Origin: Ruminococcaceae bacterium YAD3003
GTDB lineage: Bacteria; Bacillota; Clostridia; Saccharofermentanales; Saccharofermentanaceae
Reading direction: 5' to 3'
Length of the DNA stretch: 64,000 bases
Assembly (NCBI GenBank): GCA_900107185.1
Contig: FNPA01000005.1
Coordinates: 124,001-188,000 of the forward strand
Made by a program: the position numbers and the translations under genes. Positions 14,463-29,868 of this stretch are shown here, in pieces. The notes beneath the pieces are model-generated. The model was not told the origin of the DNA and ran no database searches. It saw nothing but the letters and a program-made list of their open reading frames with translations. Numbering within the stretch: the first letter of the stretch is position 1; every line of letters begins with the position of its first letter.

Positions 14463-15151
14463 GCAAAAAGGCTCCAGGGGTAACCTTCCGGAAAAGGTGC
14501 CTCAAAGCTCATGATTTCGCGCTTTACAGGGTGTTCAAAGCTCAGTTTGAATGACTGGAGCGCAACATCTTTTGCCAAATTGTCCTTTTTGCCGTATTTC
14601 TGGTCACCGATCAGTGGATATCCAAAATGAGACATCTGGGCTCTAATCTGGTGGCTCCTGCCCGTTCCGAGCTTAATTTCCGTGAGCGTCAGTCCGTCCA
14701 CTGTCTTTATAGGCTTATATTCCAAATTACAGAACTTAAATCCCGGTTTCTCCGTATCAATAACAGTCGCAATATTACGATTCTCATCTTTGGAAATATA
14801 GTTTTCGAGATGACCTGCCCCTTCTAAAACACCCTGTACAACACATCTGTACAGCTTTTCGATTTTATTGGTCCTTATTTGCTCTGATAATCTGGAAGCG
14901 GCTTTGCTGGTACGCGCGAAAACCATAACGCCAGAAACAGGTCGGTCCAGCCTGTGAACAAGACCCAGATATACCTCTCCGGGCTTCTCATACTTCTCTT
15001 TGATATAAGCTTTGAGAATAGTGAGCATATCAGAAGCTTTGCTACCGTCACTCTGAGACAATACACCAGCAGGTTTAACTGCAACGATTATATGGTTGTC
15101 CTCATAAAGGACATTTACGCCATATGGGAGATCTGTCACTTTGCTGACCAT
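14459..15151 (-). CDS. RluA family pseudouridine synthase (no S4 domain)
   Basis: About 230 aa. Catalytic motif HRLDRPVSGV (Asp is the nucleophile), preceded by KPAGVLSQSDG and followed by GRSHQIRAQMSHFGYPLIGDQKYG, the RluA-family C-terminal signature. It isomerises uridine in rRNA or tRNA; the target is not readable. The start is taken as the ATG at 15151, which lies 16 nt inside the end of the upstream methyltransferase; an upstream TTG (15169) is possible. No clear ribosome site, so coupling is likely. Confidence 0.88.
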   Translation of the reverse strand: MVSKVTDLPYGVNVLYEDNHIIVAVKPAGVLSQSDGSKASDMLTILKAYIKEKYEKPGEVYLGLVHRLDRPVSGVMVFARTSKAASRLSEQIRTNKIEKLYRCVVQGVLEGAGHLENYISKDENRNIATVIDTEKPGFKFCNLEYKPIKTVDGLTLTEIKLGTGRSHQIRAQMSHFGYPLIGDQKYGKKDNLAKDVALQSFKLSFEHPVKREIMSFEAPFPEGYPWSLFA

Positions 15152-16035
15152 CTTGCAGTCTGTCCGCAAGGGAGCAGAACGCCCATCTTTGATACAGGCA
15201 GCATTAATTCTTCTGCTTCAACCTTACCGTCCGGAATAGCCAGTTTAAATATCTGACCAGATGCCTGTGCCGTTATTCCTGTAGCATAGGAACTCGCAAT
15301 AAAGAACAACGGATCATCAGAAAGCACATTAGTACAGAGCTTAACGAGATCGTAGAAAGAATCTTCCAGTTGCCAGAGTTCACCCTTAGGGCCTCTGCCG
15401 TATGAAGGCGGATCCATTATGATTCCATCGTATTTACGGCCTCTTCTGATCTCACGCTCAACAAATTTCATACAGTCTTCTGCTATGAATCTGACGTAAT
15501 TACCTTCGAGACCGGATAATTTAATATTCTCCTTTGCCCAAGCAATCATGCCTTTAGATGCATCAACATGAACTACTTCATCTGCACCATGAGCACTGCA
15601 CGCCAATGTCTGGGCACCGGTATATGCAAACAGATTAAGGATCCTGATATCCTTCTTACCTGCTGCCTTAGCCTTTTCGATAAGATTTCCGCAGAAATCC
15701 CAGTTTGATGCCTGTTCAGGAAAAAGACCGGTATGCTTAAAAGCCGTCGGTTCGATTCTGAAAGTGAGTTTCTTACCAAGCGAATCGTAATCTATCGTCC
15801 ATGTAGACGGGAAATTCTTAAGTTTTGTCCATGCGCCTCCGCCCTTGTCACTTCTCGTATAAAGAGCATTAGGCTTTGGCAGGTCATCCATAGAGGTAGC
15901 ATTGCCATCAATTACAACGGGCCATACAGCCTGGGGATCAGGTCTCCTGAGCGTAACATTTCCCCAGCGCTCGTATTTCTCACCACCACCGCAATAGAGC
16001 AGCTCATAGTCTTTCCAATTATCTGAAATAAACAT
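15136..16035 (-). CDS. Class I SAM-dependent rRNA methyltransferase, RlmI-like
   Basis: 299 aa. SAM-binding motif LNLFAYTGAQT begins at residue 133, the acidic adenosine loop is VVHVDASKGM, and the catalytic motif is DPPSYGRG at 208-215. This combination matches the C-terminal domain of the RlmI/RlmK 23S rRNA cytosine/guanine methyltransferases, but the N-terminal PUA domain of RlmI is absent. Target base is unknown. It overlaps the RluA-type gene by 16 nt, so two RNA-modifying enzymes are coupled. Two nt upstream lies a lipoprotein gene stop-start junction. Confidence 0.85.
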   Translation of the reverse strand: MFISDNWKDYELLYCGGGEKYERWGNVTLRRPDPQAVWPVVIDGNATSMDDLPKPNALYTRSDKGGGAWTKLKNFPSTWTIDYDSLGKKLTFRIEPTAFKHTGLFPEQASNWDFCGNLIEKAKAAGKKDIRILNLFAYTGAQTLACSAHGADEVVHVDASKGMIAWAKENIKLSGLEGNYVRFIAEDCMKFVEREIRRGRKYDGIIMDPPSYGRGPKGELWQLEDSFYDLVKLCTNVLSDDPLFFIASSYATGITAQASGQIFKLAIPDGKVEAEELMLPVSKMGVLLPCGQTARWSAK

Positions 16036-16037
16036 TT

Positions 16038-16646
16038 TCAGGTTACCTCTATAGGGTCAGAAACCGCGATAACTTCATCAAAATATACCAATTGGATGGT
16101 ATATATTCCCGGACTAAAAGTACCAAATCCTTCCAGACCGGCACTAAAATCAACTTCAGCAGTAACGTTATTCTTCAATACGACTTCCTTTGTCAGGAGG
16201 AGCTCATCATTTTGATAAAGTCTTGCTTCGAAGGAAACAGTAATCGGCGTATTGAAGTAGAATGCATTCTTTAAGGCATAAGCATCTTCTGAAGAAATAC
16301 TGTTGTAATCCACCGGATTGTCATCAATAACGTCATACCACGTTGTATATATATATATGCTTCTTAAATATTCGGCATCGACATCCATAATCTCAACAGG
16401 TTCAGTTGTATATGTTCCTGTCGGTTCAAATGTTTCATAGGAAGTCTCATATGTATAAGTGGTCTGGACGATGTCAGTTCCACGTCTGTCGTCATCATCA
16501 TCGTCATTGCCGCCCCTCATATCCTCTTCCATTTGTTCCCTGATGTCTTCAATAAATGAACAGGAAGCAAAGCAAAAAGCAAGAGACAATGACAAAGTCA
16601 CTGCCGGAATCCTAACCAAAATCTTCTGTAATCTGCTGTTTGCCAT
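16038..16646 (-). CDS. Lipoprotein of unknown function, Ig-like region
   Basis: 202 aa. N-terminal basic segment, hydrophobic stretch and lipobox ending FCFASC (Cys about 29), so a membrane-anchored lipoprotein. A highly acidic linker with D-repeats (GGNDDDDDDRR) follows, then a Thr/Tyr-rich segment and a beta-rich region ending in FSPGIYTIQLVYFDEVIAVS. That end resembles the central beta domain of the 455-codon lipoprotein at 18152. I do not recognise a family. An extended -10 (TGTTATAAT) lies just upstream, and GAGGA precedes the ATG. Confidence 0.75.
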   Translation of the reverse strand: MANSRLQKILVRIPAVTLSLSLAFCFASCSFIEDIREQMEEDMRGGNDDDDDDRRGTDIVQTTYTYETSYETFEPTGTYTTEPVEIMDVDAEYLRSIYIYTTWYDVIDDNPVDYNSISSEDAYALKNAFYFNTPITVSFEARLYQNDELLLTKEVVLKNNVTAEVDFSAGLEGFGTFSPGIYTIQLVYFDEVIAVSDPIEVT

Positions 16647-16690
16647 AAATCCTCTATAACAACTGATGGTTAGAATTATAACAGGGATTG

Positions 16691-18052
16691 TTACTCTATA
16701 ACATCTCCACTGGTTTCTTCTACAACAATGCAGGAAGCCGTAAATACAATATGCTTCTTGGAAGCGTCACTGTATAAAACGAGTCCGTAATAACCCGGAG
16801 TTAATCCCTCTTCAGGTGTAAAATCAAGATCGTAGCAGGCCTGGTCATCATAAACAGAAGGCTTGCATGCTGACTCAAATAAAGGCTCATCTGTATTTAT
16901 ATCACTGAAATCTGATTCTTCAGAAAAATAGTATTCATAATACAATTCAGAATCATTCTCTTTGCTAACTGCCAAAGAGAAGCCCAGAGTCTTTGTATTG
17001 GACGCAAAAGCACTCTTACCTACAGATGTTCCGTCATAATCCCACCATCCGGAATTATAGACAAATGTGTGTGTCATCAGATCATCATCATTAAACTCAT
17101 AAACGAGATTAGCCAGATAATGGTCTTTCTTATGAGACCCGAAAGAAACTACGTCTTTCTCAATATCCTCATTTACTACTGTACATTCAACAGCAGTGAT
17201 TTCTTTTGAATGTTCATCGTATACTGTGAATTTATAAGTACCATCAATCAGGAATCCATCTTCACTAACATAGGAATCATCTACCATTTCCGATGTAAGA
17301 TCAAACCTGATACTATTCTCTTCAAGATAGAAGATGTCTGATGCATATAAAGCATCTGAACCGCTTGTAACGGTATATTTAACACCGGGCACAAAACGGA
17401 AATTAAATAAATCATCAGAGAAATAAACTCTTACACCGATTGAATCAGAATTTGTATATGTTCCCTTAGGAGCCAGAACGAGCTCACACCCGGTGTAGTA
17501 CTCAGACAGCAATCCCGGGAACACATTGTTTTCAACCGATGAATAGGAATAAACTGCGTCTATTAGAGCCTTAGGGTTCGTAAGGAATGCGTGATCAGAA
17601 TTAAGATCAACTTTTAGCTCAAAAGGAATCACCTTGCTGGAGGAACTTATAGCTGTCTTAAACTCCTGAATATTTGAAGCAGCCAAAGCGGCATCACATG
17701 AATAATCACCGATACTCCAATTAACGAGAACTGTGGCGGTCTTTGTTTTCGAATCATAAACAGGCTTCTCGATACTGTAAGTAATCGTTTCTTTGATTGC
17801 TTCATAGTAAGATGTCTGTTCGCTGTTAAGATCACCAGGATAAATGACTGATCTCAAATCATCTTCAGAAACAGTGTTATCGGAAATATAAGTCATCAGT
17901 TCACTGGTATCGCCGGCCTTAACCTGTTCGCAAAATGAAGTAGCCAATGTAACAGCTTCATTATTCATTTTCGAAGAGTCACAGCCGAAGAGAGACAGGC
18001 TTAACGCTCCAACCAACAAAACTGATAATAATTTATCCTTCAAATTCTTCAT
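16691..18052 (-). CDS. Lipoprotein of unknown function (paralogue of 18152 gene)
   Basis: 453 aa. Signal peptide with lipobox LSLFGC. Residues about 25-170 form a helical/beta N-terminal module (FCEQVKAGDT; YYEAIKETITYSIEKPV; IGDY), then a beta-rich Ig-like middle part, then a C-terminal module (WWDYDG; FSLAVSK; SVYDDQACYDLDF; PGYYGLVLYSDAS). All three modules match the order in the gene just upstream, so the two are paralogues with strong divergence. Either an ATG at 18052 or an adjacent TTG at 18055 is the start. Function unknown; the N-terminal module resembles DUF5105-type extracellular domains. Confidence 0.8.
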   Translation of the reverse strand: MKNLKDKLLSVLLVGALSLSLFGCDSSKMNNEAVTLATSFCEQVKAGDTSELMTYISDNTVSEDDLRSVIYPGDLNSEQTSYYEAIKETITYSIEKPVYDSKTKTATVLVNWSIGDYSCDAALAASNIQEFKTAISSSSKVIPFELKVDLNSDHAFLTNPKALIDAVYSYSSVENNVFPGLLSEYYTGCELVLAPKGTYTNSDSIGVRVYFSDDLFNFRFVPGVKYTVTSGSDALYASDIFYLEENSIRFDLTSEMVDDSYVSEDGFLIDGTYKFTVYDEHSKEITAVECTVVNEDIEKDVVSFGSHKKDHYLANLVYEFNDDDLMTHTFVYNSGWWDYDGTSVGKSAFASNTKTLGFSLAVSKENDSELYYEYYFSEESDFSDINTDEPLFESACKPSVYDDQACYDLDFTPEEGLTPGYYGLVLYSDASKKHIVFTASCIVVEETSGDVIE

Positions 18053-18078
18053 CAAAAATCATTTTCCTTACATTTAAG

Positions 18079-18103
18079 TGGCGCCTTGCAAGAAGGCGCC
18101 ACC
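18079..18103 (-). terminator. GC-rich intergenic hairpin between lipoprotein genes
   Basis: Nine-bp stem GTGGCGCCT / AGGCGCCAC with a 7-base loop. No T-run follows on the minus strand, so it may be a weak terminator, an attenuator or an RNA-stability element that sets the ratio of the two lipoproteins. Confidence 0.5.
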
Positions 18104-18151
18104 ATTTTCCGATTATTATATCAGACTTGCTAAATTTAAATTAGGCAGATA

Positions 18152-19516
18152 TTAGACAACCTCACAATATCCGTAAAGGAGGATCTCGCCTGTGCTAGCA
18201 TCTGAAACTACCAACATATAGTAACCTGTCTGAGCTCCACCATTTACAGGATAGTCGAGGTCATAGTACTTACCGTTAGAATATGTTGTAGGTGTTACTG
18301 TATTTGTATACAAAGGATTGTTAAGAGCATCCTTAATAGCATCGCTGGATCCCTGATCAGTCCAAGCATAGAAATATGTAATGGACTTATTGCAGTCATC
18401 AGTAACCTGGATAGAGAAAGCGATTGTCTGAACATCAGATGTATATGTGTAATCGCCAGTCATATATCCATCATAGTCAAACCAGTCAGCTTCGATAACA
18501 TAATTCTTGAATGATGTGTCATAGTAGTCGAAGTAAACGCCTTCACCAGGTGATGAAGTTCCACCGCCGTTTCCACCGCCACCGGGGGTAGAAGTAGGCT
18601 CAGGTGAAACCTGAACAGATACTGACTGTGAATCAATCAGATCACCGTCACTCATATGAAGCTCGACAGAATATGTACCTGCATCAAATACAGATGTCTT
18701 ACCAGTCTGGACATCAGAAACCTCAACACGGCAGCTAATACTTGTTGAACTGCCAAAGAGAATTTCTTCACTTGTGAAAACAGCAACTCCATCTTTCAAA
18801 AGAGTGTAGTAAACATAAGTGCCACGGTCTGAATACTCCAAAACTGCAGAATCAAAATAGTAATCATACTCAATGAAGTCTGTGTCGAAATATGTTCCGT
18901 CGCTTGTAAGCCAGAAAGCGCTCATTGTCTTGTCAATGAAGCCGGCAATCATATCAGCTGTCAAAGCAAGATTGATCTCGCTATAACGATACTCATAGAG
19001 CTTCATGAATTTCTTGCTGCCAACGTTATCACAGATCCACTCTTTATCTTCCTGAACGAATTCAGCTGTAAATGTGATCTCTTTTGTATCAGCCTTCTTA
19101 ATAGCACTTGTGAGCTCATTGATGTCAGTATAGTTCTCATCGAGAACTGATGCATAATCAGCAATTGTGAAAGTGATATCGATGGAAGCCTCACCCTTGC
19201 TGACATTGCATGTATCTTCTTCAACAACATATTCGATCGAGCCTTCAACAGCCTTGAAATAAGCCAACTGATCATCCGAATAGTCGCCGCCGTCAAGCAA
19301 TTCTGTTAATGTAGTTGCCTCATCACTCTTTTTATCGAGTGTTGAGCTCTTAATAAGCTTGCTGGCACTAGCAGAAACCATATCTGATGCTAAAGCATCT
19401 GCAGCTTCGATAACAGCCTTTTTGCCGCCACCGAAGTTCAAACATCCTGCTAAACCGAACAAGAGAGCACCTGTCATTACAACAGAAACTGCTTTCTTCA
19501 ATGAATTTCTAATCAT
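18152..19516 (-). CDS. Lipoprotein of unknown function, three-module
   Basis: 454 aa. Lipobox FGLAGC at about residue 26. N-terminal module to about 175 (AYFKAVEGSIEYVVEE; FTIADYASVL), middle Ig-like module to about 305, a flexible Pro/Gly/Ser linker (PTSTPGGGGNGGG), and a C-terminal module with ADWFDYDG, FSIQVTDD and TGYYMLVVSDAST. Extracytoplasmic, probably a binding or sensing protein. The ATG at 19516 is chosen over the adjacent TTG because GGGAGG is 8 nt before it. It is divergent from a two-component system and has a good promoter. Confidence 0.82.
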   Translation of the reverse strand: MIRNSLKKAVSVVMTGALLFGLAGCLNFGGGKKAVIEAADALASDMVSASASKLIKSSTLDKKSDEATTLTELLDGGDYSDDQLAYFKAVEGSIEYVVEEDTCNVSKGEASIDITFTIADYASVLDENYTDINELTSAIKKADTKEITFTAEFVQEDKEWICDNVGSKKFMKLYEYRYSEINLALTADMIAGFIDKTMSAFWLTSDGTYFDTDFIEYDYYFDSAVLEYSDRGTYVYYTLLKDGVAVFTSEEILFGSSTSISCRVEVSDVQTGKTSVFDAGTYSVELHMSDGDLIDSQSVSVQVSPEPTSTPGGGGNGGGTSSPGEGVYFDYYDTSFKNYVIEADWFDYDGYMTGDYTYTSDVQTIAFSIQVTDDCNKSITYFYAWTDQGSSDAIKDALNNPLYTNTVTPTTYSNGKYYDLDYPVNGGAQTGYYMLVVSDASTGEILLYGYCEVV

Positions 19517-19549
19517 CAAAGCATCCTCCCTTATTTGTATTATTTGAAT

Positions 19550-19578
19550 ATTTTATATTTCTTTTAGACAAAACTCAA
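19550..19578 (-). promoter_or_regulatory. Promoter of the lipoprotein genes
   Basis: Minus-strand TTGAGT (19573-19578), 17 nt, TAAAAT (19550-19555), 34 nt before the start codon. The 39-bp palindrome begins 6 bp upstream of the -35 box. Confidence 0.6.
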
Positions 19579-19583
19579 TAAAT

Positions 19584-19622
19584 TTGATAATTTAATTTGA
19601 TTTTCAAATCCTAAATTATCAA
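19584..19622. promoter_or_regulatory. 39-bp nested palindrome, candidate operator
   Basis: Outer arms TTGATAATTTA (19584-19594) and TAAATTATCAA (19612-19622), inner arms ATTTGA and TCAAAT around TTT, so 17 bp of complementarity interrupted only by CC. A further TTATCAAAA at 19637 repeats the outer-arm sequence 21 bp (two helical turns) downstream of the copy at 19616. This layout suits an OmpR-type regulator; that it is bound by the adjacent response regulator is inference. Confidence 0.5.
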
Positions 19623-19652
19623 AACCGGTTTCACTTTTATCAAAAACAATAA

Positions 19653-19658
19653 TATAAT
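19653..19658 (+). promoter_or_regulatory. Candidate -10 box for the two-component operon
   Basis: TATAAT 29 nt before the response-regulator ATG. The -35 region (TTTCAC at 18 nt) is poor, which fits a promoter needing an activator. Confidence 0.35.
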
Positions 19659-19687
19659 AACTATAACTAATTTGGGGGTCTTGGGAA

Positions 19688-20374
19688 ATGTCTGCAGCAC
19701 CTAATATTCTTATTTGTGATGATGATCCGGTCGTACACGAGTCATTAAGTCTCTATCTTGATAACGACAATTTCACTCACACGGACGCTTATGATGGAAA
19801 AGAATCACTCGAGATGGCTCAGGCTGTAAAGCCTGATCTTATTCTTCTCGACGTAATGATGCCTGAGATGAGCGGTCTGGATGTTTGCCGTGAGATCAGA
19901 AAGACTATGGCTACCCCTATCATTATGCTCACTGCCAAAGGTGAAGAGATTGATAAGATCGTCGGACTTGAATTAGGTGCAGACGATTATATTGTTAAGC
20001 CTTTTTCTCCCCGTGAGGTAATCGCTCGTGTTAAGGCCGTTCTCCGTCGTTTCGGGGACACACCCAAGCAGTCTTCTGTTCTTACTTTCGACGGTCTTGA
20101 GATAAACCTCAATAACTATGCTGTTAAATCCAATGGAGAAGGTGTTCCCTGCACTCCTAAGGAAGTTGAAATATTGTACCTTCTCGCATCTCATCCGGGT
20201 CAGGTCTTCGGACGTGACCAGATTTTGGAAGCAGTATGGGGCATTGATTATAATGGTGACTCCAGAACTGTTGATACACATATTAAGCGTATCAGACAAA
20301 AGATTACTTACGATAACGCTCCCTGGTCTATTCAGACCATTTATGGTATCGGTTACAAATTCGAGGTTAACTAA
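19688..20374 (+). CDS. OmpR/PhoB-family response regulator
   Basis: 228 aa. Receiver domain 1-120 with acidic pair D11-D12, phosphoacceptor D55 (LILLDVMMPEMSG), T and K switch residues in MLTAKG and IVKPFSP. A winged-helix DNA-binding domain follows (about 130-228; SRTVDTHIKRIRQKI; IYGIGYKFE). The ATG at 19688 follows a GGGGGTCTTGGG stretch. The sensor kinase gene begins directly after the stop codon. Its targets probably include itself and the divergent lipoproteins. Confidence 0.95.
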   Translation: MSAAPNILICDDDPVVHESLSLYLDNDNFTHTDAYDGKESLEMAQAVKPDLILLDVMMPEMSGLDVCREIRKTMATPIIMLTAKGEEIDKIVGLELGADDYIVKPFSPREVIARVKAVLRRFGDTPKQSSVLTFDGLEINLNNYAVKSNGEGVPCTPKEVEILYLLASHPGQVFGRDQILEAVWGIDYNGDSRTVDTHIKRIRQKITYDNAPWSIQTIYGIGYKFEVN

Positions 20375-22177
20375 ATGTTTCAAAGCACGCTTCTAAAGCG
20401 AACGATGACTCTTGTCGTAGTATCACTCCTGGCTTCTGCCTTGCTCGCGACAATTGCGTTTATTGTAGCCGGAAGAAGTGCAACCATTAGCCTCGAGGCA
20501 GATAATGCCATTAAACAGGATATCCGTTACAAGGAAGTCTTAACCAGTCATCCGGAATATTTTGAGAGCGTGGATTTCCGCCTCTTCTTCTTTGATTCCA
20601 GTTATGCGACCGGGCATGATTATTATTTGATAAACGAAGAAGGAGACATAATAAACTCCACCAGTTTGGAGCATAGAACTCTTAGCAAGACTGATACATA
20701 TAATCTCGTACCTTTGTTAAATACACTTCAGTATGACGATCTCGATGGTATGGGTTATACAGTCGAGAATTCTTCTAATGTTGAAACACTTATCTTTGTT
20801 GCTAAAATACCGGTTACGATTGAAGGCAATGCTTTTAATCTGTACTCGTTATCTTATCTCAATGGCTATAACAGCCTTGTTGGAAAATATCTCAACATTC
20901 TCCTGCTCTCTACTCTCATGGCAGCGGCATTCATGCTCGTTCCTGCATATGCATTTGTAAGCCGAATGGTTTTGCCTCTACAGGAAATCAACGAAGTTGC
21001 TATGGAATATGGTAAAGGAAACTTCAGTATCAGGGCTGATGAATCACATAAGGGTGAAATCGGAGAACTCGGTCAGTCATTCAACTTCCTTGCTGACAGA
21101 CTCTCAAAATCCATCAATGACCTTACTGCAGAGCGTAACCAGTTGCAGGATATATTCGACGTAATTTCCGACGGTATCGTTGTTGTTGATAACAATTCAG
21201 TTCCTATCACCACCAACAAAGCTATTCACAATCTCTTTGACCGTGCTGAGAAAAATAATATGTTCACCGAAAGACTCCAGCTAATTCCTTTCGATGATGT
21301 ATGGAATGATTTTGAAGAATGTATCGCTACAGGTGAAACCAAAACACGAAGAATCGATAACCGTGACTATGCTTATCAGTGCACGATTATTCCTAAATAC
21401 AACACTACTGACAATTCAATTATCGGAGCAACAGGATTCTTCCGTGATATTTTCGAAGAGCAGAAGAACGAACGCTTCCGTCAGGACTATGTAGCCAATA
21501 TCTCACACGAGTTGAGAACTCCTCTTCAGACCCTGCGTGGTCTTATTGAGCCTCTCTCTGACGGCATGGTTAAGAAAGAGGAAGACCGTCAGCGTTATTA
21601 CCAGATCATTTTGAACGAGACAATGAGATTGTCACGTCTCATCGACGACATGTTAGAGTTGTCAAAACTCCAGTCCAGAACGCTCGCGTTCAAGACCTTC
21701 CCTTTCAACCTGAACACTTTGATTTCTAATATTGAGATCAGATTCAAACCGATAATGAAAGAAGCAGGAATTAAATTCTCTGTTCAGAATAACTACGGAG
21801 AATTGCCTACAGTTGTCGGTAACCCTGACCGTGTAGAACAGATCCTTGTCATTCTTTTGGACAACGCTAAGAAATACACTCCTAAGGGCAAAACTATTAC
21901 GATTTCAACCGATTATATCGAGACAGAGAAAAAGGTTTATGTATCTGTTGCTGATACAGGTCTTGGTATTCACGAATACGATATCGGTCATATCTTTGAC
22001 CGTTTCTTCAAGGCTGACCGTGCCAGAGGTAAGAAGGGTTCAGGCTTAGGCTTATCTATTGCAAAAGAGCTCTTGACTTACATGGGTGAAACTATCACGG
22101 TTAACAGTAAATACGAAGAAGGATCTACCTTCACATTTACTTTGACCAAAGCAGAGGTTCCGGATGCCTGGGACTGA
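20375..22177 (+). CDS. Sensor histidine kinase (PhoR/WalK-like)
   Basis: 600 aa. TM1 about 11-32, extracytoplasmic domain about 33-170, TM2 about 172-195, HAMP 196-250, PAS about 255-360, HisKA with phosphoacceptor H378 (ANISHELRTPL), and HATPase_c with N box NPDRVEQILVILLDNAKKY, G1 ADTGLGI, and G2 GSGLGLSIAKELL. This architecture is that of PhoR/WalK-type kinases. The stop and start abut the response regulator. The extracellular loop of about 140 residues is the likely sensing part. Confidence 0.95.
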   Translation: MFQSTLLKRTMTLVVVSLLASALLATIAFIVAGRSATISLEADNAIKQDIRYKEVLTSHPEYFESVDFRLFFFDSSYATGHDYYLINEEGDIINSTSLEHRTLSKTDTYNLVPLLNTLQYDDLDGMGYTVENSSNVETLIFVAKIPVTIEGNAFNLYSLSYLNGYNSLVGKYLNILLLSTLMAAAFMLVPAYAFVSRMVLPLQEINEVAMEYGKGNFSIRADESHKGEIGELGQSFNFLADRLSKSINDLTAERNQLQDIFDVISDGIVVVDNNSVPITTNKAIHNLFDRAEKNNMFTERLQLIPFDDVWNDFEECIATGETKTRRIDNRDYAYQCTIIPKYNTTDNSIIGATGFFRDIFEEQKNERFRQDYVANISHELRTPLQTLRGLIEPLSDGMVKKEEDRQRYYQIILNETMRLSRLIDDMLELSKLQSRTLAFKTFPFNLNTLISNIEIRFKPIMKEAGIKFSVQNNYGELPTVVGNPDRVEQILVILLDNAKKYTPKGKTITISTDYIETEKKVYVSVADTGLGIHEYDIGHIFDRFFKADRARGKKGSGLGLSIAKELLTYMGETITVNSKYEEGSTFTFTLTKAEVPDAWD

Positions 22178-22877
22178 TTCTGAAGGTATTAGACTCAACA
22201 AATATATTGCTTCATCAGGCCTTTGTTCCAGACGCGAGGCTGATACTCTCATCGAGAGCGGAAAAGTAACGATCAACGGAGTCGTTGCTGTTCAGGGAAC
22301 AAAAGTCAAAAGCGGTGATGTTGTTGAAGTTTCCGGCAGGAAGATTACACCTGATGATTCCATGGTTTATATCGCTTTTAATAAACCGCTTGGTATCACA
22401 TGCACAACTGACACAAGAGATCCTTCGAACATTATCGATTACATCGGATACGGAGAGAGGATCTTTCCTGTCGGCAGACTGGATAAGAATTCATCAGGTC
22501 TCATACTTCTCACCAATGACGGTTCGATCGTTAATAAATTACTCCGCGCAGAGAACGGACACGAGAAAGAGTATGTTGTCACTGTAAACAGACCATACGA
22601 CAGCAAATTCATTAAGTCGATGGAATCAGGTGTTCCCGTTCTTGGCCAACTTACTCTCCCCTGTAAGCTTAAACCGGTTAACGATAAAACGTTTAAAATC
22701 ATCCTTCATCAGGGATTAAACCGCCAGATCAGACGCATGTGCGAGTATCTTGGATTTAAGGTTACAAGGCTTAAGCGAATAAGATTCATGAATATAAAGC
22801 TCGGTGATCTCGAAACCGGAAAATGGCGTCACCTTACAGCTGAAGAAAAAAAAGAATTATTAAAAGATATTACATAA
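22164..22877 (+). CDS. RsuA/RluF-family pseudouridine synthase
   Basis: 237 aa. N-terminal S4 RNA-binding domain (IRLNKYIASSGLCSRREAD, residues 9-27) and a catalytic domain with VGRLDKNSSGLILLTNDG (Asp nucleophile) and LNRQIRRMCEYLGF. The pattern matches the RluF/RluB branch acting on 23S rRNA. It overlaps the kinase gene by 14 nt, so a rRNA-modifying enzyme is coupled to a two-component system. A bidirectional terminator follows. Confidence 0.9.
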   Translation: MPGTDSEGIRLNKYIASSGLCSRREADTLIESGKVTINGVVAVQGTKVKSGDVVEVSGRKITPDDSMVYIAFNKPLGITCTTDTRDPSNIIDYIGYGERIFPVGRLDKNSSGLILLTNDGSIVNKLLRAENGHEKEYVVTVNRPYDSKFIKSMESGVPVLGQLTLPCKLKPVNDKTFKIILHQGLNRQIRRMCEYLGFKVTRLKRIRFMNIKLGDLETGKWRHLTAEEKKELLKDIT

Positions 22878-29325: not shown

Positions 29326-29868
29326 TTAAGTCCCCGTCTGGCCAACAACGCCTTCCAACATATACCAGGAACCGTTGACCTCATACACATAAAAACTGAA
29401 ATCAGCCTCGACAGTCTCGACACTATTGGTAAAGCATGCCTTGATCTTCTGGATACGGATCTGACCGACTTCAGAATACTCAAAACCCGTAACATGACAG
29501 ATTCTGGATTTCATGCCGGCCTCGTCATAGCCGTTAGCCAGAGTATATTCAACATAGCCGTCATTTCTGGTACCGACTATATCGCCGTTGATCCTCAGCG
29601 TATCTCTGTAACGCTCGAAAACATTAACATCGTTGATTTCTTCGAGTCTGTCAATAAAACCATCCGGATAACATTTATCGAACATCGCCTCATCGCCAAG
29701 GAACAAAGATTCCAAATAAGCTCTGGCAACATACTGACCATCGGTATTGACCTGTTCCATAGATACAGGCAGGTCAACCTGAATTGTGGGTTTAGTATCT
29801 TTCGAGCAGGCAGAAAACAGCATAACAACTGCAATCATCAGAGCCAATAATGTAGTGATCTTACGCAT
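29326..29868 (-). CDS. Lipoprotein of unknown function (DUF4878-like)
   Basis: 180 aa. Signal peptide and lipobox VMLFSAC (Cys about 21). The rest is an alpha+beta domain with DGQYVARAYLESLFLGD and ending YVYEVNGSWYMLEG, a pattern like NTF2/DUF4878 lipoproteins. Function not known. Its start overlaps the rarA stop by 8 nt, and dtd follows 2 nt after, so it lies in a rarA-lipoprotein-dtd unit. Confidence 0.75.
   Translation of the reverse strand: MRKITTLLALMIAVVMLFSACSKDTKPTIQVDLPVSMEQVNTDGQYVARAYLESLFLGDEAMFDKCYPDGFIDRLEEINDVNVFERYRDTLRINGDIVGTRNDGYVEYTLANGYDEAGMKSRICHVTGFEYSEVGQIRIQKIKACFTNSVETVEADFSFYVYEVNGSWYMLEGVVGQTGT

What the first reader, a model, noticed from the sequence alone, without database searches (positions are those of the whole stretch)
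16038..22177. Three related lipoproteins divergent from a two-component system
Three minus-strand lipoproteins share modules (N-terminal domain, Ig-like middle, C-terminal WFDYDG...PGYY module in two of them). They face a PhoR-like kinase and its regulator across a 170-bp region. This looks like a self-contained surface-sensing or envelope-stress module of unknown purpose, possibly undescribed.
Basis: partly seen in the sequence, partly recalled or inferred. Interest (0 to 1): 0.6.

Follow-up and report, generated by a model that had tools for sequence, protein, structure and literature searches.

The report
Modular lipoproteins beside conserved sensor kinase
Three related surface lipoproteins sit head-to-head with a sensor kinase and its regulator in a clostridial bacterium; the regulator pair is an old system, while the lipoproteins are a fast-evolving later addition that probably works in the cell envelope and may tune the kinase.

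Summary
Three lipoproteins (LP1-LP3, 16038-19519) face a response regulator and kinase (19688-22177) across 168 bp. Profile comparison confirms shared modules: an N domain (probably NTF2-like) in LP2 and LP3, an Ig-like module in all three, a WxDYDG...GYY beta-sandwich in LP2 and LP3. None has a Pfam or NCBIfam family. LP1 lies divergent from the regulator in 50 of 50 complete same-genus loci. But the module is not self-contained: the kinase occurs in 173 of 188 genomes of the order, none of 12 loci from other families holds these lipoproteins, and paralogues lie away from it. The intergenic region holds a conserved element between two putative promoters. The kinase's outer domain has diverged as fast as the lipoproteins, and LP2 covaries with it beyond an unlinked, equally fast control. 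Best reading: a lineage-specific lipoprotein cassette added to a core WalK/PhoR-type system, comparable to C. difficile walA-walRK-truA2. Regulation and contact with the kinase are inferred.

The parts
16038..16646 (-). LP1: lipoprotein, disordered spacer, one Ig-like domain (about 91-202)
   Evidence: ORF; AF2 model, block pLDDT 66-94 from residue 91; profile match to LP3 middle module; in 50 of 50 complete genus loci (49, L144)
16691..18055 (-). LP2: lipoprotein, N module + Ig-like middle + WWDYDG/PGYY C module; likelier start ATG at 18052
   Evidence: full N-mid-C form in 24 of 50 complete genus loci
18152..19519 (-). LP3: lipoprotein, N module (about 30-180, probably NTF2-like) + Ig-like middle + WFDYDG/GYY C module; likelier start ATG at 19516
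   Evidence: an N-module protein besides LP1 in 42 of 50 complete genus loci
19550..19578 (-). putative LP3 promoter TTGAGT-N17-TAAAAT
   Evidence: scan (where promoter-like sites are no more frequent than in shuffles: 18 against 18.3); seen by eye in the alignment; my pattern for it occurs in 6 of 25 close loci, shuffle mean 0.67, maximum 4
19583..19605 (.). candidate shared operator, TTTGATAATTTAATTTGATTTTC
   Evidence: TTTGATTTT in 15 of 25 close intergenic regions, window included, shuffle mean 0.21, maximum 2; 0 of 8 in a sister clade; the 22-base stretch is the only exact copy in the genome
19630..19658 (+). putative regulator promoter TTCACT-N17-TATAAT
   Evidence: the TTGCA-type -35 with TATAAT occurs in 13 of 25 close loci, shuffle mean 0.06, but not in the window, which has TTCACT
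19688..20374 (+). OmpR/PhoB-type response regulator
   Evidence: PF00072 and PF00486 over cut-off
20375..22177 (+). membrane histidine kinase: TM, ectodomain (about 34-172), TM (these three by eye), HAMP, PAS, HisKA, HATPase
   Evidence: matches at E <= 1e-60 in 173 of 188 genomes of the order
22164..22877 (+). pseudouridine synthase (RluF/RluB type, name by eye), overlaps the kinase gene by 14 bp
   Evidence: follows the kinase directly in nearly all loci (not in L165, L166)
15136..16035 (-). SAM-dependent methyltransferase-like gene (name by eye), 2 bp after LP1, so likely co-transcribed with the LPs

Best explanation
An old two-component system (OmpR-type regulator plus WalK/PhoR/ResE-type kinase, followed by a pseudouridine synthase gene) gained, in this family and mainly in this genus, a divergently transcribed cassette of modular lipoproteins. 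The lipoproteins are anchored outside the membrane. An NTF2-like pocket domain (LP2, LP3) and Ig-like beta-sandwiches (all three) bind a cell-envelope ligand. The regulator is proposed to control both divergent promoters through a shared element, and at least LP2 is proposed to touch or tune the kinase ectodomain, as accessory envelope proteins are thought to do for Wal systems. Shown: genes, modules, conserved linkage, conserved intergenic element, fast ectodomain. Inferred: the NTF2 assignment (probable), regulation, ligand, contact with the kinase.
For: Synteny IleS-RluD-MTase-LP1-LP2-LP3 <> RR-HK-RluF (gene names by eye). LP1 in 50 of 50 complete genus loci, and all LP genes found there divergent from the regulator. 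TTTGATTTT in 15 of 25 close intergenic regions against a shuffle mean of 0.21. N module: 15 of 58 members hit PF25155 NTF2_YvbJ (best E 1.4e-4) and 7 of 58 PF05223 MecA_N (best 0.062), all below cut-off; the LP3 model aligns with the PBP2a N-terminal domain, Z 7.7-7.9, 94-106 residue range of matches (98-106), rmsd 2.8-3.4. Kinase ectodomain mean identity 0.500 against 0.956 for the catalytic part and 0.472-0.530 for the LPs, 19 genomes. LP2 distances covary with the ectodomain after controls that include an unlinked, equally fast lipoprotein: partial r 0.46, leave-one-out 0.34-0.55, 17 genomes; 0.42 with LP1 and LP3 controlled too; 0.57, 0 of 999 permutations, in a first run on 15 genomes. 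Best WalK-profile match in the genome, 296 bits against 178 for the next. Precedent: C. difficile walA(lipoprotein)-walR-walK-truA2(pseudouridylate synthase), PMC9210968, passages seen, whose authors suspect that WalA modulates WalK.
Against: TTTGATTTT is missing in 10 of 25 close loci and in 8 of 8 of a sister clade; the pattern was picked after seeing the alignment and the loci are related, so the shuffles flatter it. LP1 and LP3 lose most of their covariation with the ectodomain once the unlinked control is added (0.14 and 0.24; 0.09 and 0.28), and many such tests were made. The system does without these lipoproteins in 12 of 12 complete loci of other families. An LP3-like gene (57% identity) lies away from the system in one 84%-complete, 7%-contaminated genome. 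No B. subtilis-type WalR box in the intergenic region. NTF2_YvbJ misses 43 of 58 N modules, the window's own among them, and the single lowest E-value in that scan is to another family (SlpA_C, 7.8e-6, one member). Several terminator-like sites on the LP strand fall inside the LP genes. No call gives expression or binding.
Confidence: 0.45

Rival explanations
1. The lipoproteins are ordinary envelope proteins of the IleS-RluD-methyltransferase gene row; their place opposite the two-component system is inherited synteny with no regulatory or physical link.
For: LP1 ends 2 bp before the methyltransferase starts. In two sister genera (2 of 6 complete loci) an N-module lipoprotein sits at the methyltransferase with other genes, among them a transporter-like one, between it and the regulator. 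Paralogues are spread through the genome. The surrounding gene order is mostly kept.
Against: Of the block proteins compared the LPs are by far the most diverged (0.47-0.53 against 0.81 or more for the other whole proteins), yet they stay at the divergent promoter; the conserved element; the LP2-ectodomain covariation beyond the unlinked control.
Confidence: 0.35
2. The lipoproteins are targets of a WalRK-like cell-wall regulon and modulate peptidoglycan hydrolases (an IseA-like role) without touching the kinase.
For: Weak PF16800 (IseA DL-endopeptidase inhibitor) matches: 12 places in 10 of 78 genus genomes at E <= 0.05, 3 of the 12 inside LP3 orthologues of G047, G018 and G009; 3 of 58 N modules, best E 0.0011. 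That IseA is a WalR target is recalled, not looked up. One LP3-like gene lies near an MreB-like gene (MreB by eye).
Against: 0 of 78 genomes have a match over the family cut-off, while the B. subtilis control does; the three loci belong to one clade, so may be one event; NTF2 families match more members; no WalR box.
Confidence: 0.12
3. The system is a true WalRK orthologue and the lipoproteins stand in for the usual WalK accessory proteins. (Compatible with the best explanation, not exclusive of it.)
For: The kinase aligns with the WalK profile from residue 83 to 591 and is the best match in the genome; it is near-universal and nearly always single-copy in the order; gene order resembles the C. 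difficile wal operon.
Against: 296 bits against a cut-off of 725, and 235.6 against 340 for YycF; PnpS and MtrA come nearer to their cut-offs (274 of 400, 235 of 300). Another regulator in the genome scores slightly higher for YycF (242.4). Matches to this kinase at E <= 1e-70 were seen in 10 of 196 class genomes, 8 in the order and 2 outside it.
Confidence: 0.2

Closest known systems
C. difficile wal operon walA-walR-walK-truA2 (PMC9210968, passages seen)
   Same: A lineage-specific lipoprotein gene beside an OmpR-type regulator and membrane kinase, with a pseudouridine synthase gene downstream
   Different: walA is one co-directional gene with a predicted beta-propeller lyase domain; here three divergent genes with NTF2-like and Ig-like modules. 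C. difficile WalK lacks the intracellular PAS domain; this kinase has a PAS region (below cut-off here, over it in three orthologues)
MtrAB-LpqB of Actinobacteria (search listing and one sentence; LpqB domains recalled)
   Same: Conserved two-component system with a partner lipoprotein
   Different: LpqB is built from other domains (recalled); this regulator does not reach the MtrA cut-off (234.9 of 300)
Extracellular NTF2-like lipoproteins (DUF3828/DUF3887/DUF4878; PMC3924330, passages seen) and YvbJ/TcaA-type zinc-ribbon proteins (TcaA layout recalled)
   Same: Lipobox or zinc-ribbon-membrane proteins with an outside NTF2-like domain, proposed to bind ligands; a paralogue here (L078:6826-7821) is zinc ribbon, membrane helix (by eye), C module
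   Different: Only sub-cut-off sequence matches; the WxDYDG...GYY module has no family in the libraries searched
N-terminal domain of PBP2a (MecA_N, NTF2-like in Pfam's description)
   Same: The N part of the LP3 model aligns at Z 7.7-7.9 with 14-15% identity
   Different: No transpeptidase; the tool warns that Z under 8 may be only a common arrangement

Membership tests
WalRK | WalK and WalR/YycF equivalog models over cut-off | tested here: not met
   296.2 of 725; 235.6 of 340; 0 of 59 relatives over the WalK cut-off, 1 of 14 control genomes over it
WalRK | Kinase with HAMP, HisKA and HATPase domains | tested here: met
   All over cut-off
WalRK | Intracellular PAS domain (B. subtilis type) | tested here: inconclusive
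   Below cut-off in the window (PAS_8 16.4 of 21.8); over cut-off in orthologues L154, L164, L165, not in L161
WalRK | Extracellular Cache/PDC domain | tested here: inconclusive
   No Pfam hit for the ectodomain; not folded
WalRK | WalR box TGTWAH-N5-TGTWAH at target promoters | tested here: not met
   None in the intergenic region; 6 sites with one mismatch in the window, 8.5 expected
WalRK | Essentiality; phosphotransfer | not testable with these tools
   -
PnpRS/PhoPR | Equivalog models over cut-off | tested here: not met
   PnpS 274.1 of 400; PhoR 210.2 of 334.2; PhoB 227.1 of 296.2
PnpRS/PhoPR | Linkage to pst/phoU | not tested
   No such gene noticed by eye in the window ORFs; no family search was made
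Extracellular NTF2-like domain | Sequence model over cut-off | tested here: inconclusive
   Sub-cut-off only: NTF2_YvbJ in 15 of 58, MecA_N in 7 of 58, DUF3828 in 2 of 58 N modules; none for the window's own
Extracellular NTF2-like domain | Fold | tested here: inconclusive
   PBP2a N-terminal domain Z 7.7-7.9 on a model with block pLDDT 76-90 at residues 31-180; the domain was not folded or searched alone
Bacterial lipoprotein | Signal peptide with lipobox cysteine | tested here: met
   Read by eye in LP1-LP3; the cysteine (C26 of LP3) is invariant in 34 aligned family members
IseA endopeptidase inhibitor | PF16800 over cut-off | tested here: not met
   0 of 78 genus genomes over cut-off; B. 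subtilis control over it

The most novel reading that the evidence does not exclude
A lineage-specific set of NTF2/Ig lipoproteins has become the signal-receiving part of a core, near-universal WalK-like kinase: LP2 binds envelope fragments with its NTF2-like pocket and docks on the fast-evolving kinase ectodomain, while the regulator feeds back on the lipoproteins through one shared operator.
Probability: 0.18. Interest if true: 0.65.

Novelty: new variant of a known kind. Interest (0 to 1): 0.4.

Why it matters
If the link is real, it would be a further independent case, beside walA and lpqB, of a core cell-envelope two-component system with its own lipoprotein partner. It would give a concrete, rapidly evolving lipoprotein-ectodomain pair in which to ask what such kinases sense. 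It also marks out a lipoprotein family, with a WxDYDG...GYY module, that the searched copies of Pfam and NCBIfam do not hold.

Tried and rejected
WalR box search: no enrichment. PDB sequence searches with LP3 and with a 58-member N-module profile: nothing significant; best for the profile 5kpe, a de novo beta-sheet design, E 0.19. Foldseek with the whole LP3 and LP1 models: beta-sandwich proteins with low TM-scores (RbmA, LILRB, C3b for LP3; UNC119 and PDE6D for LP1), read only as 'beta-sandwich'. Pfam scans of wider sets: 1 of 6 members hit DUF4878 at E 0.076; 2 of 34 hit NTF2_YvbJ and 3 of 34 A2M_BRD (best 3.7e-4); among 58 N modules other families also ring weakly, one of them (SlpA_C, one member) at 7.8e-6. 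A first covariation test seemed to tie all three LPs to the ectodomain (partial r 0.44-0.64); an unlinked, equally fast lipoprotein showed a similar effect (0.44) and a second unlinked one 0.39, so the claim was cut back to LP2; with the control the LP3 middle module still has 0.35 and the LP2 middle 0.34. Searching the intergenic element through the genome gave one further place with 3 mismatches, some 300 bp upstream of a gene that looks by eye like a substrate-binding lipoprotein; too little to call. Kinase tree against named Firmicutes: no named reference sequences were at hand. Literature: the titles listed by searches (8 of 13 shown; 10 of 2,229 shown) include none on this lipoprotein-TCS pairing; that covers only the held open-access library and those terms.

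What was left out of counts: one search examined 77 loci; 9 had no regulator/kinase or no far end in the fetched stretch (L045, L057, L065, L073, L075, L076, L134, L150, L166), leaving 50 of the genus, 6 of sister genera, 12 of other families. L134 carries the system at another place without lipoproteins. LP1 of L144 and LP3 of L068 overran the gap edge and are counted. The loci of the genus were picked because LP3 or the kinase had matched, not at random. The N-module alignment took the window's module and 57 of the 98 modules from outside the close group that one search listed. One search used 19 of 25 close loci (3 left out by hand for contig ends or short kinases, 3 for lack of one protein); searches used 15 and 17 of the 19 genomes searched.
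Full report
What is there. The window lies in a 2.67-Mb genome in 30 contigs, 99.9% complete. Two named relatives found by LP3 are MAGs filed as Ruminococcaceae bacterium RUG13376 and Oscillospiraceae bacterium SIG422. Gene order (names of the flanking genes by eye) is IleS, RluD-like, methyltransferase-like, LP1, LP2, LP3, all minus, then 168 bp, then response regulator, histidine kinase and pseudouridine synthase, all plus. LP1 stops 2 bp before the methyltransferase starts, and the scan shows no terminator-like site between the LP genes, though several lie inside them; one operon with the methyltransferase is likely.

Modules. No Pfam family (E up to 1) or NCBIfam family (E up to 0.1) matches the three lipoproteins. 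Profile-profile comparison of 11 parts, the LP profiles built from 24-25 close sequences, finds LP3N-LP2N 98.0, LP3mid-LP2mid 95.8, LP3C-LP2C 99.4, LP1-LP3mid 93.9 and LP1-LP2mid 23.5, and nothing else above 5.4% probability. In 20 of the 50 complete genus loci LP1 itself carries an N module, so the window's LP1 may have lost one. The modules are shuffled elsewhere: two N modules in a row in L077:10364-11911 and L079:1088-2206, and the C module behind a zinc ribbon in L078:6826-7821.

Folds. LP1 residues 91-202 are modelled as a beta-sandwich (block pLDDT 66-94). The LP3 model (mean pLDDT 66.1, six sequences) is fair at 31-180, fair to weak at 365-455 and poor in the middle and linkers. Its N part (34-176) aligns with the N-terminal domain of PBP2a: six entries, Z 7.7-7.9, rmsd 2.8-3.4, 98-106 aligned, 14-15% identity. 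Of 58 N modules, 15 match NTF2_YvbJ (best E 1.4e-4) and 7 MecA_N (best 0.062); the window's own matches neither at E 0.5, and one member matches SlpA_C at 7.8e-6. All NTF2 matches are below the curated cut-offs. An NTF2-like fold is therefore probable, not proved. Published work proposes ligand binding for extracellular NTF2-like domains in lipoproteins and zinc-ribbon proteins (PMC3924330, passages). An NTF2 domain of Pgp2 is reported to bind peptidoglycan (PMC8038945, title and start of abstract in the listing).

Conservation. LP3 as query matched in 66 of 118 genomes searched, the own one included, all in the same genus; this search is less sensitive than profiles, and weaker N modules do occur in two sister genera. 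The kinase matched at E <= 1e-60 in 173 of 188 genomes of the order, 27 of 30 genera, nearly always once, and in nearly all fetched loci it is followed by the RluF-type gene. Of 50 genus loci with both ends of the gap in hand, 50 hold LP1 and all lipoprotein genes found there point away from the regulator; 42 hold a further N-module lipoprotein and 24 a full LP2. Of six such loci of sister genera two hold an N-module lipoprotein at the methyltransferase; of 12 loci of other families none does. The simplest reading is that the kinase pair is older and the lipoproteins were added.

Regulation. The aligned intergenic regions suggest two divergent promoters; the pattern I wrote for the LP3 promoter is found in 6 of 25 close loci (shuffle mean 0.67) and a TTGCA...TATAAT pattern for the regulator in 13 of 25 (0.06), the window not among the latter. 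TTTGATTTT occurs in 15 of 25 (shuffle mean 0.21, maximum 2), and followed by CAAA in 12 of 25 (shuffles 0), but in 0 of 8 of a sister clade. These patterns were chosen after seeing the alignment. The exact 22-base stretch occurs once in the genome, with one further place at 3 mismatches. This is a candidate shared operator; binding by the regulator is inference.

Covariation. Over 19 genomes the kinase ectodomain is 0.500 identical on average, the catalytic part 0.956, the regulator 0.943 and the lipoproteins 0.472-0.530. Fast sensor domains are common (recalled), and distances between fast proteins can correlate for trivial reasons. I therefore added an unlinked lipoprotein of the same speed (0.54). 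It took away most of the LP1 and LP3 signal (0.09 and 0.28; 0.14 and 0.24). LP2 kept 0.57 (0 of 999 permutations, 15 genomes) and 0.46 (leave-one-out 0.34-0.55, 17 genomes); its N module 0.43 against -0.08 for the LP3 N module, while the LP3 middle module keeps 0.35. This makes LP2 the first candidate partner. It is correlational, exploratory, and rests on related genomes.

Which system. The kinase scores best against WalK (296 of a 725 cut-off) and PnpS (274 of 400); the regulator against YycF, MtrA and PhoB, all below cut-off. The locus kinase is the top WalK match in this genome by 118 bits, and 0 of 59 relatives pass the cut-off. Another regulator of the genome scores slightly higher for YycF. 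Matches at E <= 1e-70 came in 10 of 196 class genomes, 8 of them in the order. I do not file it as WalRK; it is built on the WalK/PhoR plan.

Verdict. The 'self-contained module' is not: an older system with a younger, modular, fast-changing lipoprotein cassette beside it. The best precedent I found is the C. difficile wal operon with its lipoprotein WalA and a pseudouridylate synthase gene (PMC9210968, passages).

Noticed in passing
L078:6826-7821 (minus; own genome C15): Zinc ribbon, Ala/Pro/Glu-rich stretch, membrane helix (by eye), then the LP C module: a YvbJ/TcaA-like layout. 19 of 19 close genomes searched have a match at E <= 1e-25.
   Followed up: partly
L045:6983-8344: LP3-like gene (57% identical) between a rho gene and an HD-domain gene, with an MreB-like gene (by eye) next, without the two-component system; genome 84% complete, 7% contaminated, so it may be a stray contig.
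   Followed up: partly
L076, L174, L175, L176, L182, L183: Rows of four to five N-module lipoprotein genes in four genus members (G017, G062, G048, G006), as if locally amplified.
   Followed up: no
L170:750-1400 (own genome C11): Intergenic stretch with many repeats of a GATGCATCC-type motif, origin unknown.
   Followed up: no
29326-29868 (minus): Another small lipoprotein-like gene without a Pfam family over the cut-off, away from the finding.
   Followed up: no
L147-L149: In sister genera a transporter-like gene (by eye) sits in the gap between methyltransferase and regulator, in L147 and L148 with further genes co-directional with the regulator.
   Followed up: no
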